Made by a program: the position numbers and the translations under genes | Assembly: GCA_903825465.1 (NCBI GenBank) | Contig: CAIKAR010000051.1 | Location: forward strand, 1 to 44,262 | From: an uncultured Hyphomicrobiales bacterium | GTDB lineage: Bacteria; Pseudomonadota; Alphaproteobacteria; Rhizobiales; Beijerinckiaceae | Direction: 5' to 3' | DNA length: 44,262 bases | The notes under the pieces: generated by a model | Databases searched by the model: none | Told to the model about the DNA's origin: nothing | What the model saw: the letters and a program-made list of their open reading frames with translations, nothing else | Part shown: piece by piece, positions 2 to 27,606 of the stretch | Layout: each line of letters opens with the position of its first letter | Numbering within the stretch: the stretch's first letter is position 1

Positions 2-2314
2 GACGGTGCCGTGGCCGAGGTCGATTTCATCAAGAGCATCAATCCGCTTGGAGGAGAAGAAGCGACCGGTTTAGTCACGCGCTTTACTATTCGAAAAAAA
101 GCCTCGCCTGCAGGTTTTCCCGTCTGTCTGCGCCTGCTGTCCCAAACGGACATCATGAAGATCCTCGTTAATTCCTATCTCCAGGACGGCGACCAGGAGT
201 ACGAGGCTGAACTGGATGCGGCCGAGCTCGATGCCCACCTCCGCTCTTTTGAAAGCCGCTGCGCCGCCGCGGCGGTCGATGTGCTACGGAGCGAGGACAT
301 CTGGGACTTGCAAGAATACGTGATCAGACATGCGTCGGGCGCGGTGTCTGCTCGTTCAATCGAGTCGGCGTGGCCACGGCTGGCGAGCCTTGCGCCGCTT
401 TTGAACGTCGAGGATCGCGGCGCATTGCTGAGCATTCTTTGGGGCGGACATCAAACGTATACGGACCTCTTCGTTTCGCTTGCCGGCGCGCTTGCCGACT
501 TGAGCTTCTCGACGGACGCCTTTTGCCCCATCGAGAGTCTGTTGCCGGCGACGGACGGCATCTTGAATGTTAGGACGCTGGAGGCGCTGCTTTTGAGCAA
601 GGGGCCGGCGTTGCGTGTCAGCAATGGACAAGGCGGGGAGGTCGAGTTGTCGCGCGCCGTTGTCGCGGCGCTTGCCGCCGAATTGCGCATTGTCTGTCGG
701 GATGAACCGCGCGGTTTTCTTCGGCACACCGACTTGCTCGATTTTCCGGGCTATCGCAGCCGCACACGACAAAATCTCGCAAGATACATGCGCGACGCTT
801 CTCACGCCGCGCCTAAAGAGCTGTTTCTGCGTGGCAAGGTCGATTACCTTTTCCAGAGCTATACCGCCCATCTCGAGCTGACCAGCCTGATCCTATGTCT
901 GCCCGACTCCAATCTGGAGGTCACCAGCCTACCCAAGGCAATTGAAAACTGGATCAGCGTGACGCACGGATCGACGCCGGAAAAGCGTGTCGGAAAGCCG
1001 ACGCTGTTGTTCTTCGCGCTCACCAAGTTTGACCGCCATTTGATGGAATCTGCGGGAGAGGAAGGCAACGATCCGGCCTTGCGCTTCGAGATACGGCTCA
1101 ACGCCTCTTTGCTCAGCCCGTTCGCCAAGGTCGAGCCTTCCTGGCCGCGGCAGTGGACGTCCGGAAAGCCCTTCGACAATCTGTTTTGGATCCGCAATCC
1201 CAACTTCAAGGCGGAGCACGTCATCAACTATTCCGAGCGCCGGGAAGTTGAAATAATCCCGGCACGTCGTGTTCGCATCGGCCAGCTTCGCGATGCTTTC
1301 ACGGCCTCGGCGGCGGTCCGCACGCACTTTCGTGATCCCTCGCGCAGCTGGGACGAGGTCATGACGCTCAATGATGGCGGCGTTCGCTATCTCGCGGAAG
1401 CCATTTCGTCCATCGCGCCGGAGGATCTCAAGTTCGGGCAGATCGCCGCTCGCCTTGCGGACATGCGCCGTGAAATCCATGGCTTCCTGCATACCTATTA
1501 TGTTGACGACGACTACGTTGTGCGGCGGGCGCAGCGGCTCGCCGTCGTGGACGAGCAGATTTTCGTTGACCTCAACAACTGCGCGGAACGCGGGGCTTTC
1601 GGTACAGCGCTGCGTGGGCTGATGGTCGACGCGTCTGATTTTTACGGCGCCTTCTGGCAGTTGTTGAACCAGGCGGTGCCCGCCGAGGCTCGCGTGCCGC
1701 AGCCTCGCGCCCGCGGCCTTTTCACCAGCATCGTCAATAAGCAGACTGCGGAAGACGCCCCCACATTCGATCGATGGGGTCGAATAGGCGTCGCAGCGCT
1801 GAACTACTGGACGAACCTCATGTTCGAGCGGGCTGACGATCCCGCCTTTGCGCGGCGCATCGGCATCCGGCCCGAGACGTTGAATGAGATCGTGGCGGAG
1901 TTTGGGAACGCAGCGCGACGCGTCAAACTGCACGAACGAATCGCGGAGCAGATGAGGGAGCGCGCGACGCCAAATGAAAACCTTGACGCAGTGGTGCGCA
2001 AGATTGGACAGGTAACCGAAAAGGTTATCAACCGCTTCGTCGCCCAGCTCGACTTCGACAAATGGCCTCCCAGCGTGCAAAAAGCCGAATTTGGCGAAGA
2101 TCTGCTCGAGCCAGTTTTCCTATCAAGACCCGTTCAATACGATGTTGCGGAGTTGCGGGAGGAACGTCTCGATCTGGCAGTCGAATTCATGATCGGCTGG
2201 GGAACAGGTTTTCGCGCCACAGCGGCTAAGAACGCCACGTCCTTGAACGGCTTCGTCGAAGACCCCGCGCTGAACGCTCGCCTTGGTGAAATTCTCAAGG
2301 CGGTGGCGGCATGA
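2..2314 (+). CDS. SrfC-family (Virul_Fac) dynamin-like GTPase, 5'-truncated by window edge
   Basis: The reading frame is open to the left edge, so the N-terminus and the P-loop (G1) lie outside the window. A GTG at 11 is only an internal codon of what should be a longer protein. Counting from that codon (767 residues), a switch-I-like stretch GGEEATGLVTRFT sits near residues 14-26, a G3 motif DFPG at 244-247 and a G4 motif TKFD at 338-341; together with the large mostly helical C-terminal part this is the pattern of bacterial dynamin-like proteins of the SrfC/Virul_Fac family (PF10139). In other bacteria srfC sits with srfA and srfB; those would be upstream. The stop (2312-2314) is 19 nt before the next start, so co-transcription is likely. 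Family call is fairly firm; membrane remodelling is only inferred from the dynamin-like motifs. Confidence 0.82.
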   Translation, partial: DGAVAEVDFIKSINPLGGEEATGLVTRFTIRKKASPAGFPVCLRLLSQTDIMKILVNSYLQDGDQEYEAELDAAELDAHLRSFESRCAAAAVDVLRSEDIWDLQEYVIRHASGAVSARSIESAWPRLASLAPLLNVEDRGALLSILWGGHQTYTDLFVSLAGALADLSFSTDAFCPIESLLPATDGILNVRTLEALLLSKGPALRVSNGQGGEVELSRAVVAALAAELRIVCRDEPRGFLRHTDLLDFPGYRSRTRQNLARYMRDASHAAPKELFLRGKVDYLFQSYTAHLELTSLILCLPDSNLEVTSLPKAIENWISVTHGSTPEKRVGKPTLLFFALTKFDRHLMESAGEEGNDPALRFEIRLNASLLSPFAKVEPSWPRQWTSGKPFDNLFWIRNPNFKAEHVINYSERREVEIIPARRVRIGQLRDAFTASAAVRTHFRDPSRSWDEVMTLNDGGVRYLAEAISSIAPEDLKFGQIAARLADMRREIHGFLHTYYVDDDYVVRRAQRLAVVDEQIFVDLNNCAERGAFGTALRGLMVDASDFYGAFWQLLNQAVPAEARVPQPRARGLFTSIVNKQTAEDAPTFDRWGRIGVAALNYWTNLMFERADDPAFARRIGIRPETLNEIVAEFGNAARRVKLHERIAEQMRERATPNENLDAVVRKIGQVTEKVINRFVAQLDFDKWPPSVQKAEFGEDLLEPVFLSRPVQYDVAELREERLDLAVEFMIGWGTGFRATAAKNATSLNGFVEDPALNARLGEILKAVAA

Positions 2315-2333
2315 ACTCTCACAGGAGCCAGAG

Positions 2334-3119
2334 ATGCGCGGATTGATCGCCGCGGGATGGGTCAGCTTCGCGCTAATCGTGATCGTCGGTGGCGGCCAAT
2401 TCCTTTTTGCCTGCGATTTTGAGATGGGTGGCTGGCATTGGAACGCATGCCCGGCGCGTGCCGACACCGGTGCGATGGATACCGAAGCCGCGCGCGGTGA
2501 GAAGCTACAAAGGCAAATCCATGCGGCGGAATTGGAAGTCGTCCGCGAGCCCATTTGTGAAATACCGAAGGCGAACGGGGAGTTCGTTCAGTTGCAAAAG
2601 CGAACCTACGAGCGGGGAGCGATGTCCGGAAAGCTCGAGGTCTTTTTGGCGTGGCACACGCTTGACGACGTGGATCTGGAGGTCGAATGCCCGGGTGGCA
2701 AGATTACAGGCGTCGGCGATCATTTCGGGCCGGGTATTTGCGGAGATGGAAAACTCGATCTAGATGCGAATCGCAGTCTTACAATCAATGTCCAGCGAGA
2801 CCCTATCGAACACGTCGCTTGGCTTAAGGCTCCACCGTATGGCGAGTATTTCTTTTCCGCCCACATCTTTATGGTTCATGATCCCGAGCGGCCTAAAAAT
2901 ATTCCGTTCGAGATGACTGTGTCGCTTGATGGGGAGCAAAAGAAATGCAGCGGTTCACTGGAATGGATTCCGCGGTCGCTTGGAGTAAAAGCGCCTCGCG
3001 GCGGCATCCTGGCTACGCGTATTCTCGGCCTACGCTGGAAGTCCGGCGACCCGCTTCCAAAATGTGATTGGCAATCGCGCGACGCCACGTTTTGCGACGG
3101 ATCGTGTTCAAAGAATTAG
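2334..3119 (+). CDS. Membrane-anchored YfaP/DUF2135-like protein
   Basis: 261 residues. The ATG at 2334 is chosen because AGGAG lies 7 nt upstream (2322-2326) and a signal-anchor-like hydrophobic segment (residues 4-26) follows; an in-frame GTG at 2283 would overlap the SrfC-like gene. The rest should lie outside the cytoplasmic membrane. Residues about 101-210 contain FLAWHTLDDVDLEVECPGG, which resembles the 'LxW...DLDLHVxxPdG' beta-sandwich signature of YfaP/DUF2135 proteins. Several cysteines (residues 27, 39, 75, 119, 136, 205) could form disulfides. It follows the SrfC-like gene directly and shares its lower-GC composition, so it probably belongs to the same functional unit. The DUF2135 similarity is by eye and the role is unknown. 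Confidence 0.72.
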   Translation: MRGLIAAGWVSFALIVIVGGGQFLFACDFEMGGWHWNACPARADTGAMDTEAARGEKLQRQIHAAELEVVREPICEIPKANGEFVQLQKRTYERGAMSGKLEVFLAWHTLDDVDLEVECPGGKITGVGDHFGPGICGDGKLDLDANRSLTINVQRDPIEHVAWLKAPPYGEYFFSAHIFMVHDPERPKNIPFEMTVSLDGEQKKCSGSLEWIPRSLGVKAPRGGILATRILGLRWKSGDPLPKCDWQSRDATFCDGSCSKN

Positions 3120-3193
3120 GTTCGAATCCTTTGAGGCCAAGGCATTAAAATTGACTCCAGACGCCATAGATTTTGAGAATCGAAGCTAGCGAC

Positions 3194-4837
3194 ATGACCA
3201 TGAATTTCAAAAGCGACACCTCCCGGCCCGGCGGCGGCTACGCTATCTTGGCCATAGATACTGATTTGCTGCCCATCTCGTTGGCGATCGAGGACCGAAG
3301 CAACTGTTTATTTCTCGGACTTGGAGGCAAGTGGACCAAACAACCGCATTATTTCAAGGTCGAAATGGTTGACTCCACCAGCGTCCGGCTTGGCCCGGAA
3401 ATCGTCGACTATGTCGAAGCGGACACGATCGTAGGGCTGCATGGTGAAGGTGGCAAACTGCTCGGCGTGCAGGTCTGGCCTGCGATCCGGCCTAGCGCTG
3501 GTGCCAGCAGTGGCTTTGTCATGCCTAATCGTCTCGAAATGGCAGTCGCCACTGCCGTCGCGGAGGTGGTTGCGGCGACCCCGGCTGCGGCTTCGGCAAC
3601 GCCTGCCCATTCTCCTGTGGCGACGTTTGATGAGTTGCCGCCGCTTCCTCAACCTCCACTTATGAGCAATATTGAACCCATTGTGCCGCGGCTAAAGCCT
3701 GCGGGGCATAGTTCTGGGCTGCTTAAACCGCTTCTGATTGGCAACGGCGTCGCCTTGTTGATTTTGTTTCTGGTGTTTTTTCGCGGGACAGACGCGGCCA
3801 GAGGTCTCGTCTGCGAACCTAACAGTCCGCTAGCTGGGGCCGAAATCGCCAAAACACTGATCTCATGCCCTGCGAAGCCGGCCTTCAATCCTGAGGCAGC
3901 AGCGTATACCGATTATCTGCAATGCCTTCCGAGCAAGCCGGTCTGTGCACAAAAGGCCTGTAGCGATGTGTATCTCTCCAAGGTCCCGATTGGAAACCAC
4001 GCCGAGCAAGTTCGAGCTGCAGCTGCGGAAAGTCAAAGATCTTGCGTCGCAGATGCAGACAAGAAAACCGCCGCCGACAATTTCGCGGCCTTCAACGAAT
4101 GCTTGCGAGCGAATCCCAACGTCTGCAGCCGCGCACAATGTGTCGATCGCTTTCGCTACAAGCTGACAATTGAACCTTATGCGTCGAGCTTGCGCCAGGC
4201 GGCAGATCTCGCCGCCAATGACTGCCGACGCCAGCAGGAGGACGCCGGATTTGCGGAATTCAACCGGTGCGTCGCGGGGGCCGCCGCCTGCGACACGGCG
4301 CGGTGCGCGAGTGCTTTTACGTCAGCCAATCCAACTAGCGCGTACATCTCCCGTGTATTGCAAACTGCTGAGAACGCCGCGCGCACATGCGCCGCAGCGC
4401 GCCCCGCGCCCCAGCAACTCCCCTCACCGCCTCAAGTGAATTCGGCGGAACAAGCGACGCGTAGCTTCATCGCACGTTACTATTATAGTTCGAGTTCTCA
4501 GGGCGAAGCTGCCGGCGCGAGCCTGAGCAATTTTTTCGCGTCAAACGTCACGTTCTATGGCAAACCAATGTCCGGCGCTGCTGTAATGAGGGAAAAATCC
4601 AACTATAATAAAAGGTGGAACCAAAGAAGCTTTTCTCTGCGCGACGATTCCCTTTCAGTTGTCTGCAATTCATCCGGCGGAGTCTGTCGGGCAACCGGCC
4701 AGGTCTTATTTGATGTCGCGAGCACTTCGCCTCAAAGGAACGCCCGCGGTCTCTCCTCATTTGATTTTTTGGTCGCAGATCCTCAGTCCGATCCCAAGGT
4801 TGTCGGGGAGAGTGGAAATGTCCTGCAGCGCTATTGA
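3194..4837 (+). CDS. Membrane protein with triplicated four-cysteine module and NTF2-like C-terminal domain
   Basis: 547 residues from ATG 3194; ATG 3200 or TTG 3173 are alternatives and no ribosome site decides. Residues 1-100 form a globular domain of unknown type, 100-175 is an Ala/Pro-rich linker, and 178-197 a transmembrane helix. Residues 235-400 hold three copies of one module with cysteines spaced C-x6-C-x4-C-x27-C (C244, 251, 256, 284), C-x7-C-x4-C-x27-C (303, 311, 316, 344) and C-x6-C-x4-C-x27-C (359, 366, 371, 399), suggesting disulfide-tied helical hairpins in the periplasm. The last 130 residues, with 'VTFYGK...EK...RW' and a final 'VLQRY', resemble NTF2-like tails seen in rhizobial exported proteins. 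It follows the SrfC/DUF2135 pair on the same strand. No family name is recognised. Confidence 0.72.
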   Translation: MTMNFKSDTSRPGGGYAILAIDTDLLPISLAIEDRSNCLFLGLGGKWTKQPHYFKVEMVDSTSVRLGPEIVDYVEADTIVGLHGEGGKLLGVQVWPAIRPSAGASSGFVMPNRLEMAVATAVAEVVAATPAAASATPAHSPVATFDELPPLPQPPLMSNIEPIVPRLKPAGHSSGLLKPLLIGNGVALLILFLVFFRGTDAARGLVCEPNSPLAGAEIAKTLISCPAKPAFNPEAAAYTDYLQCLPSKPVCAQKACSDVYLSKVPIGNHAEQVRAAAAESQRSCVADADKKTAADNFAAFNECLRANPNVCSRAQCVDRFRYKLTIEPYASSLRQAADLAANDCRRQQEDAGFAEFNRCVAGAAACDTARCASAFTSANPTSAYISRVLQTAENAARTCAAARPAPQQLPSPPQVNSAEQATRSFIARYYYSSSSQGEAAGASLSNFFASNVTFYGKPMSGAAVMREKSNYNKRWNQRSFSLRDDSLSVVCNSSGGVCRATGQVLFDVASTSPQRNARGLSSFDFLVADPQSDPKVVGESGNVLQRY

Positions 4838-5004
4838 TGTGGGGGCGCTGGATTCCATCCATCAGGGCGGCGTTGTCACGTTGTCCAATCCGCGGCGCAA
4901 GAGGCCTCTACGTCGTATTTTCTCAAGCCGCTAGAGCCGCCTCGCGCGAAGTATTCATCGCCGCACCCTCGAAACGCGCGGTGGTTGGTGGCGGATCCGT
5001 CGGG

Positions 5005-5645: not shown

Positions 5646-6701
5646 TTGGCGGAGGCCGCCGGCATCAGCGTTTCATCGCGCGGTCGTTTCGTCCGCGTGG
5701 TTTTCGCGGCGGCGCTTCTTGGCTGCGCGTCCGGCGCGAAGGTGTCAGCGTCCGATTTCTATCAGGGGCGAACGATCACAATGGTCGTTGGCTCCGATGT
5801 CGGGGGCGGCTTCGACGCCTTCGCGCGCCTGCTGAGCCGCCATCTCGGGCGCGCCATTCCCGGAAATCCGCGAATCGTCGTCGAAAACATGCCGGGGGCC
5901 GGCAGCGCCGCGGCCGCGAGCTACATCTATTCGCTCGCGCCGAAGGACGGCACCGTGATCGGCGCGCTTGTGCCCGGAGGGCTCCTCGCGCCGCTCTTCG
6001 AGGGCCGACCCGCGGCCTATGACACGACGAAGTTTCGATTTCTGGGCAGCGCCAACGCCAGCGCCCGGCTTTGCATCTCGGAGAAGACGTCCGGCATCGC
6101 GACCTTTGAGGAGGCCACGAAAAGGAAGGTGCTCGTCGGCGCCGGCTCGGTGGGCAGCGCCTCTTACGATTACGCCTATCTGCACAAAAATCTTCATCAT
6201 GGAAATTTCGACATCGTGGCCGGCTACAAGGGCATGGCCGACATTCTGCTGGCGATGGAACGCGGCGAGGTTCAGGCGGTTTGCGGTTTCGACTGGTCGA
6301 GCCTCAAGACCCAGCGTTCCAATCTCGGCCCGGACGGCCAGTTCAACTTCCTCCTGAAGGTCGAGGTGCAACCGGACGCGCAACTCGACGCGTTGCGCAT
6401 TCCCGCCGCGCGGACCTTCGCCGCCAACGAAAGGGACGCGGCGGTCGGCGACCTCGTCGCGTCGCAGCAGATCTTCGGTCGGCCATACGCGGTGGCGCCG
6501 GACGTCCCGGCGGATCGCCTGCGTATTTTGAAAGCCGCCTTCGACGCGTCGATACGCAGCGAACAGCTTGCGAGCGAAGCGGCGGCCGCGGGCCTCCAGA
6601 TCGACTCGGCCAGCGGAAACCTGGTCGAAGAGGCGGTGCGAGCCATGTATCAAGCGCCGGCCGACATCGTCGCGGGCGCGAGAACGGCGATCCGGCCGTG
6701 A
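5646..6701 (+). CDS. Tripartite tricarboxylate transporter substrate-binding protein (Bug/TctC family)
   Basis: 351 residues from TTG 5646, supported by GAGGGGG at 5631-5637, 8 nt upstream; the ATG at 5638 is in another frame. Residues 10-35 look like an export signal. The mature start 'FYQGRTITMVVGSDVGGGFDAFARLL' and 'NMPGAGS' near 81-87 are characteristic of Bug/TctC solute-binding proteins (PF03401), which capture organic acids in the periplasm for a TctA/TctB permease. No tctA or tctB gene lies nearby, so this is an orphan binding protein and its ligand cannot be predicted. The gene ends 94 nt before argS. Confidence 0.82.
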   Translation: MAEAAGISVSSRGRFVRVVFAAALLGCASGAKVSASDFYQGRTITMVVGSDVGGGFDAFARLLSRHLGRAIPGNPRIVVENMPGAGSAAAASYIYSLAPKDGTVIGALVPGGLLAPLFEGRPAAYDTTKFRFLGSANASARLCISEKTSGIATFEEATKRKVLVGAGSVGSASYDYAYLHKNLHHGNFDIVAGYKGMADILLAMERGEVQAVCGFDWSSLKTQRSNLGPDGQFNFLLKVEVQPDAQLDALRIPAARTFAANERDAAVGDLVASQQIFGRPYAVAPDVPADRLRILKAAFDASIRSEQLASEAAAAGLQIDSASGNLVEEAVRAMYQAPADIVAGARTAIRP

Positions 6702-27278: not shown

Positions 27279-27354
27279 TGGCTCCCTGAGCAGGGCTCGA
27301 ACCTGCGACAATTCGATTAACAGTCGAATGCTCTACCAACTGAGCTATCAGGGA
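27279..27354 (-). tRNA. tRNA-Asn (anticodon GTT)
   Basis: The 76-nt gene on the minus strand begins TCCCTGATAGCTCAG and ends CTCAGGGAGCCA. The acceptor stem is TCCCTGA/TCAGGGA, the anticodon loop CTGTTAA gives GTT, the T arm GTTCGAGCC is standard, and the 3' CCA is encoded (27279-27281). Confidence 0.96.
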
Positions 27355-27532: not shown

Positions 27533-27606
27533 GGCCTCGTGGCGGAGTGGCTACGCAGAGGACTGCAAATCCTTGTACGGGGGTTCGATTCCCTCCGAGG
27601 CCTCCA
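27533..27606 (+). tRNA. tRNA-Cys (anticodon GCA)
   Basis: The 74-nt gene has acceptor stem GGCCTCG/CGAGGCC, discriminator T and encoded CCA (27604-27606). The anticodon loop CTGCAAA gives GCA. The T arm GGGTTCGATTCCC is standard. The 336 bp between it and the next coding start (27943) hold no ORF with coding character, no terminator with a T-run and no visible copy of the tRNA 3' end. Confidence 0.96.

What the first reader, a model, noticed from the sequence alone, without database searches (positions are those of the whole stretch)
2..4837. SrfC-type dynamin-like GTPase linked to two membrane-anchored extracytoplasmic proteins
The SrfC-like gene carries visible GTPase motifs (DFPG, TKFD) and is followed in tight order by a signal-anchored DUF2135-like protein and a novel one-helix membrane protein with disulfide-type repeats. 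The three share lower GC than the core genes that follow. This looks like an accessory unit in which a cytoplasmic dynamin-like protein works with periplasmic partners, which is not how srfABC is usually described.
Basis: partly seen in the sequence, partly recalled or inferred. Interest (0 to 1): 0.72.

Follow-up and report, generated by a model that had tools for sequence, protein, structure and literature searches.

The report
Tail of membrane-spanning SrfABC-type operon
The three genes are the end of an extended version of the bacterial srfABC operon, in which two predicted energy-using proteins inside the cell are encoded beside membrane-anchored proteins with exchangeable outer parts; this gives the poorly understood 'virulence factor' SrfABC a testable role in the cell envelope.

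Summary
Window 2-2314 is a SrfC-family gene (PF10139) cut at its 5' end by the contig edge; P0002 (2334-3119) and P0003 (3194-4837) follow on the same strand at lower GC. The best relative, a Rhodoblastus MAG, carries the upstream genes missing here (trypsin-domain SrfA, second SrfA, SrfB, SrfC with P-loop) and, after srfC, orthologues of P0002 and P0003. P0002 is the membrane-plus-periplasmic half of alphaproteobacterial SrfA. P0003 belongs to an unnamed family (cytoplasmic domain 'P3N', one helix, variable outer part) found in 24 of 36 SrfC loci read, usually as the next gene. In 397 genomes of the order, 14 have P3N and SrfC, 1 SrfC only, 2 P3N only. Many related loci carry T6SS-Tag-like genes (printed in 2013); the window's clade shows none. 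Six compact srfABC loci without these partners nest inside clades that have them, so they look reduced. My reading is a trans-envelope NTPase machine with swappable periplasmic heads. Linkage is shown; mechanism is inferred; 'dynamin-like' is not shown.

The parts
2..2314 (+). srfC-family gene (SrfC, predicted cytoplasmic P-loop GTPase), truncated at its 5' end by the contig edge; about 94 N-terminal residues with the P-loop are missing
   Evidence: PF10139 E 2.3e-185; 80% identical to L005 SrfC; G3 DFPG and G4 TKFD present
2334..3119 (+). P0002: signal-anchored, probably periplasmic protein: helix, short stretch, DUF2135/PPC-like beta module; equals the second half of alphaproteobacterial SrfA
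   Evidence: 64% orthologue directly after srfC in L005; BLAST to the TM-onward part of SrfA2 of Methylobacterium, E 1e-13, and to Mesorhizobium SrfA2, E 3e-32 (small subject set); SrfA-profile hit covering positions 195-407, E 1.2e-12
2547..2978 (+). DUF2135/PPC-like module of P0002
   Evidence: profile A5, which includes it, E 2.7e-45; module profile hits subtilase C-terminal part in PDB, E 4e-7
3194..4837 (+). P0003: single-pass membrane protein, probably N-in; P3N domain (residues about 1-111), disordered linker, helix (about 180-200), three Cys alpha-hairpin repeats (244-399), alpha+beta C-terminal domain
   Evidence: 58% identical to L005 16927-18570; model m883b7168e587; repeats
3194..3523 (+). 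P3N domain, the srfC-linked cytoplasmic domain
   Evidence: profile A4, which includes it, E 1.3e-34; 24 of 1960 ORFs of 25 loci at convergence

Best explanation
The block is the 3' end of an extended srf locus (srfA1-srfA2-srfB-srfC-P0002-P0003, the first three judged from L005) that encodes an inner-membrane, envelope-spanning NTPase machine. SrfC (P-loop GTPase) and SrfB (probable actin/Hsp70-type ATPase, recalled from motifs) sit in the cytoplasm. They are coupled through two kinds of small cytoplasmic adaptor domain (SrfA-N and P3N) to single transmembrane helices, each carrying an exchangeable periplasmic head: trypsin-like protease, DUF2135/PPC-like beta module, Cys alpha-hairpins, Sel1 or other domains. 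The heads sense or act on the cell wall or outer membrane, and nucleotide turnover drives or is gated by that contact. In many relatives the input is supplied by a T6SS-Tag-like sensory cassette; in L005, the window's sister, it seems to be replaced by four P3N paralogues with different heads. SHOWN: gene order, homology, module swapping, co-occurrence. INFERRED: topology, complex formation, direction of signalling, function.
For: L005 has trypsin-SrfA, SrfA2, SrfB, SrfC, P0002-like, then three P3N proteins with different outer parts, one of them P3N fused to the P0002 module; a fourth P3N gene lies upstream. 36 of 38 loci read have SrfC by BLAST; of these 24 have P3N, 27 a SrfA-N gene, 17 the P0002 module and 17 a VWA+ABC+FtsX+SUMF1 set. 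In the order, both P3N and PF10139 in 14 genomes, PF10139 only 1, P3N only 2, neither 380 (Fisher p 8e-23, relatedness ignored). In the phylum, P3N in 4 of 364 genomes, all PF10139-positive, three of them not used to build the profile and each right after srfC. Most SrfA-like proteins read show one hydrophobic helix, and seven scanned match NF040486 below its cut-off. SrfC and SrfB trees nest six compact loci inside P3N-bearing loci. A published swarming defect of srfC and srfB mutants (PMC4219756, passages) and SrfA-B-C complex formation (PMC6950479, abstract) fit.
Against: No experiment bears on the window's proteins. SrfB was not found in the window's own assembly (one search's profile search had no positive control), probably because the contig breaks there, but loss is not excluded. 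The P3N profile was built from srf loci, 9 of the 14 double-positive genomes gave it sequences, and 7 of the 15 SrfC genomes are one genus. 12 of 36 SrfC loci lack a significant P3N hit: 6 compact loci, 5 with another or divergent gene at that place (L032, L046, L047, L074, L075), and a congener's locus (L037) where the gene after srfC lies on the other strand. In the phylum sample 13 of 17 SrfC genomes gave no P3N match. One genome (G310) has a P3N protein with no srf gene in 15 kb. Two of six compact SrfA proteins and L005 SrfA2 show no helix at the script's threshold. SrfC's structure prediction failed.
Confidence: 0.55

Rival explanations
1. Secreted toxin/effector: SrfC (with SrfA and SrfB) is a tripartite cytotoxin or exported effector, and the extra proteins are export helpers or passengers.
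For: Xenorhabdus SrfABC was cytotoxic to cultured cells and the three proteins form a complex; its srfC is 2682 bp with T6SS-control genes nearby, so it is a long form, not a reduced one (PMC6950479, abstract and introduction read). SrfC was suggested as a T3SS effector (PMC2897811, passages).
Against: Members occur in free-living or plant-associated alphaproteobacteria such as Rhodoblastus, Humitalea, Methylobacterium and Mesorhizobium. Most SrfA-type members carry a hydrophobic helix, some with a protease domain.
Confidence: 0.12
2. Anti-phage or anti-competitor defence: a sparse, often plasmid-borne GTPase + ATPase + protease set acting on attack at the envelope.
For: Sparse distribution (15 of 397 genomes of the order), presence on plasmids (140 of 72,556 records), Tag-like cassette known from T6SS retaliation (recalled; PMC11881912 search listing only).
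Against: Of 8 proteins scanned against PADLOC only the trypsin domain of SrfA1 gave a hit. No nuclease domain was seen in the 27 proteins scanned; an amidase-like gene in L005 (by eye) was not scanned.
Confidence: 0.15
3. Local hitchhiking: the two downstream genes merely travel with srfC on a mobile block and have no functional tie.
For: Lower GC than the genes downstream; blastn similarity to L005 stops at 4838; SrfC found in only 2 of 37 genomes of the genus, and the two SrfCs belong to different clades.
Against: P3N and the P0002 module recur beside SrfBC in many genera and the P0002 module is part of SrfA proteins.
Confidence: 0.05

Closest known systems
srfABC operon (SrfA NF040486, SrfB PF07520, SrfC PF10139)
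   Same: SrfC family by Pfam; SrfB and SrfA relatives directly upstream in the closest relative
   Different: Here srfC is followed by a detached SrfA periplasmic half and a P3N protein; in L005 there are two SrfA paralogues, one with a trypsin domain; the six compact loci read lack all of these
srf-tagQRST-ppkA neighbourhood of host-associated Deltaproteobacteria (PMC3608642, 2013, passages read)
   Same: SrfB/SrfC next to T6SS threonine-phosphorylation-pathway genes and an unnamed gene labelled LigA, which may be the P3N gene (my inference)
   Different: No Tag-like gene within the window or the 22 kb of L005; L005 multiplies P3N proteins instead
T6SS threonine phosphorylation pathway (TagQRST, PpkA)
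   Same: In 17 of 36 loci a VWA protein, ABC ATPase, FtsX-like permease and SUMF1 protein are near srfBC; correspondence to PpkA/TagT/TagS/TagR is by domain type and by PMC3608642
   Different: The one VWA protein scanned showed only VWA domains in Pfam, no kinase; set not seen in the window or L005
DUF2135 / PPC-like beta modules (PF09906; C-terminal part of subtilases 5fax, 1wmd)
   Same: Module of P0002 and its relatives aligns to them
   Different: Below Pfam's cut-off; joined to a helix or SrfA instead of a protease
Dynamin superfamily / GBP GTPases
   Same: G1 (in L005), G3 and G4 motifs; weak profile hit to GBP1
   Different: No dynamin domain hit and best GBP hit E 0.08 in 1 of 20 members; fold not obtained

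Membership tests
SrfC (PF10139) | Match above Pfam cut-off along the protein | tested here: met
   618.9 bits vs cut-off 28.1, profile 79-878
SrfC (PF10139) | Intact P-loop | tested here: inconclusive
   Missing from the window because the contig begins there; present in L005
srfABC operon | srfA and srfB upstream of srfC | tested here: inconclusive
   Not found in the own assembly (without positive control); present in L005, 80% identical in SrfC
srfABC operon | SrfA family protein (NF040486) | tested here: inconclusive
   P0002 fits only the second half of the SrfA alignment A10 and has no NCBIfam hit; seven other SrfA-like proteins hit NF040486 below its cut-off
DUF2135 (PF09906) | Match above Pfam cut-off | tested here: not met
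   P0002 no hit; relative in L032 19.8 bits vs 22
Dynamin superfamily | GTPase motifs G1, G3, G4 | tested here: met
   GPSQAGKS (L005), DFPG, TKFD; motif names recalled
Dynamin superfamily | Dynamin-type G-domain fold with helical stalk | tested here: inconclusive
   Model pLDDT 36.6; GBP1 E 0.01
T6SS Tag sensory cassette | VWA + ABC + FtsX + SUMF1 genes beside srfBC | tested here: not met
   None in the window or in L005's 22 kb; the window's own upstream side is missing
Anti-phage defence system | Match to a PADLOC model of a known system | tested here: inconclusive
   8 proteins scanned; only the trypsin domain of SrfA1 hits RT-Protease_XI models
Tripartite SrfABC cytotoxin | Cytotoxicity of purified or expressed proteins | not testable with these tools
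   Reported for Xenorhabdus (PMC6950479, abstract)

The most novel reading that the evidence does not exclude
SrfABC is the core of a separate class of trans-envelope machine: two cytoplasmic NTPases drive a set of single-helix membrane arms whose periplasmic heads are exchanged between two adaptor chassis (SrfA-N and P3N). P3N proteins (a proposed 'SrfD') are its missing core subunit, and compact srfABC loci, Salmonella-type by recall, are stripped remnants.
Probability: 0.35. Interest if true: 0.78.

Novelty: new variant of a known kind. Interest (0 to 1): 0.55.

Why it matters
SrfABC has been called a virulence factor, a T3SS effector and a toxin, with no agreed function (PMC3608642 and PMC2869309, passages read, both call it unclear). 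The comparison moves it to the cell envelope, gives it a candidate fourth subunit with a recognisable domain, shows that SrfA has exchangeable outer parts, and suggests that compact loci lost partners. Each point can be tested in harmless soil bacteria or in E. coli K-12.
Full report
What is there. The window begins at the first base of contig C51 of a 142-contig genome of 3.9 Mb. Three + strand genes follow: 2-2314 (open at its 5' end), 2334-3119 and 3194-4837 (ATG starts chosen by me for the last two). The first matches PF10139 Virul_Fac (SrfC) at E 2.3e-185 over profile positions 79-878; the other two have no Pfam or NCBIfam match. About 94 N-terminal residues of SrfC, with the P-loop, are cut off by the contig edge; DFPG and TKFD are present. 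P0003 has a hydrophobic helix near residues 180-200 and three Cys repeats that align to each other better than any of 500 shuffles per pair. A model with five sequences gives a beta domain at about 1-100, a disordered linker, alpha-hairpins at 233-402 (both parts mostly pLDDT 70-88) and a poorly modelled alpha+beta end.

The missing context. The closest relative in named genomes is a Rhodoblastus MAG, L005 (80% in SrfC). It holds, in order: a P3N protein (432-2150), a TPR-like protein on the other strand and an amidase-like gene (both names by eye), SrfA1 with a trypsin domain (E 3e-17), SrfA2, SrfB (PF07520, E 7e-259), SrfC, an orthologue of P0002 (64%), a fusion of the P0003 front half with the P0002 module, a P0003-type protein with another C-terminal part (Sel1-like by eye, no Pfam hit), and the P0003 orthologue (58%). 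blastn similarity between the window and L005 stops at window position 4838, right after the third gene. SrfB was not found in the window's own assembly (one search had no positive control), most simply because the contig breaks just upstream. The exact order srfC-P0002-P0003 was seen only in L005; a stand-alone P0002-like gene also lies two genes after srfC in L032.

What P0002 is. It matches the second half of alphaproteobacterial SrfA proteins: BLAST to Mesorhizobium SrfA2 at E 3e-32 and to Methylobacterium SrfA2 from the membrane helix onward at E 1e-13 (small subject set). The SrfA alignment A10, run on the own genome, hits P0002 and nothing else, over alignment positions 195-407 (E 1.2e-12). 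In L005 the SrfA2 protein itself ends soon after its hydrophobic stretch (by eye). So a module that sits on SrfA elsewhere sits on its own helix here and on a P3N chassis in the L005 fusion. The module resembles DUF2135 (a relative at 19.8 bits against a cut-off of 22) and the C-terminal part of two subtilases (E 4e-7 and 2e-5).

What P0003 is. Six seeds (P0003, four L005 proteins, one Cereibacter protein) picked 18 of 1960 ORFs in the first round, the seeds' own ORFs included, and 24 at convergence; all lie in the window or in loci fetched for SrfC. In loci from named plasmids the gene after srfC carries this domain in Methylobacterium, Mesorhizobium, Cereibacter, Rhizobium and Enterobacter sp. 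638. In Gluconobacter and strain UR115 a one-helix protein sits there without a significant match. In the window and L005 the P0002 gene lies between srfC and the first P3N gene. In the congener locus L037 the gene after srfC is on the other strand and no P3N was found.

Genome-scale association. In 397 genomes of the order, PF10139 was found in 15 and P3N in 16; 14 have both. SrfC without P3N: G192. P3N without SrfC: G310 and G264. Nine of the 14 genomes gave sequences to the profile and seven of the 15 are one genus, so the Fisher value (8e-23) overstates independence; the low count of P3N without SrfC (2 of 382) does not depend on the seeds. In 364 genomes of the phylum, P3N was found in 4, all among the 17 with SrfC; three (G554, G692, G453) were not in the profile and each match begins 55-63 nt after the SrfC match. 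The other 13 SrfC genomes there gave no P3N match: 9 of the 10 of family f89; three of one genus of the own class, where a divergent gene sits in that place in the two loci read (L074, L075); and G530, whose P3N gene was found at E 1e-8 in the fetched contig though the genome search had missed it.

Wider locus. Of 38 loci read including the window, 36 have SrfC by BLAST (not L040 and L082). Among these 36: P3N in 24, SrfA-N in 27, the P0002 module in 17, and a VWA + ABC ATPase + FtsX-like permease + SUMF1 set in 17. Domain content of the set was checked in one locus and by annotation in three. That srf genes neighbour tagQRST and ppkA was published in 2013 for Deltaproteobacteria, with an unnamed gene called LigA (PMC3608642, passages); the Xenorhabdus paper also notes T6SS-control genes beside srfABC. 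The window and L005's 22 kb show none of the set.

History. In the SrfC tree six compact loci of family f89 (SrfC frames of 710-820 aa, no P3N match and no Tag-like set) form a clade (100/100) inside a clade whose other rows, L044, L072 and L073, have both. The SrfB tree gives the same nesting, with L081, which has P3N, further out. The trees are midpoint-rooted. Loss in the compact branch is the simplest reading. The window's SrfC pairs with Rhodoblastus; the only other SrfC found among 37 genomes of the genus, several of them incomplete, groups with Methylobacterium, so the genus seems to have gained srf loci more than once.

Mechanism. The parts list points to a machine at the inner membrane: cytoplasmic SrfB and SrfC, cytoplasmic adaptor domains, single helices and outer heads. 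Linkage and modularity are shown. Topology (from helices, cysteines and a protease domain), coupling and purpose are inferred. The toxin/effector view rests on cytotoxicity of expressed proteins of a long-form locus (PMC6950479) and on a suggestion (PMC2897811); it does not account for the membrane helices or for carriers such as Rhodoblastus and Humitalea. A defence role is not excluded. The label 'dynamin-like' should be dropped until a G-domain fold is shown: the best evidence is GBP1 at E 0.01 and the structure attempt failed.

Verdict. A real and well-supported linkage, correctly spotted. It is the tail of a known kind of operon in an extended, modular form that seems not to have been described as such; the six literature searches made here could not test that fully.

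Noticed in passing
plasmid records: 140 of 72,556 plasmid records carry a SrfC relative, 114 of them from Klebsiella; srf loci are frequent plasmid passengers there.
   Followed up: no
G008:C50 (L003, L037): A second, different SrfC (34% identical), cut at its 5' side by a contig end, in a congener; it groups with Methylobacterium, a separate acquisition, and the gene after it is on the other strand.
   Followed up: partly
window 5750-6340: Part of the ORF 5646-6701 has many DNA matches of about 65-86% across the own and related genomes, a large paralogous family; looks like a TctC/Bug-type receptor by eye, no Pfam hit above cut-off.
   Followed up: no
G310:C18:5187-6560 (L082): A P3N-domain protein with no srf gene within the 15 kb read: the domain may have a life outside srf loci.
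   Followed up: partly
L042 12608-17779, L045 12712-17174: Rhizobial srf loci are followed by a glycoside hydrolase family 3 gene (both), with PAN-domain genes annotated in L042, instead of Tag-like genes.
   Followed up: no
G000:C109:11365-11667: A second, weak DUF2135-like match in the own genome (E 2.6e-5).
   Followed up: no
window 27282-27354 (-) and 27533-27603 (+): Two divergent tRNA genes (Rfam).
   Followed up: no
L031 (G394): SrfC of this genome has an in-frame TGA in the search result; left as it is.
   Followed up: no
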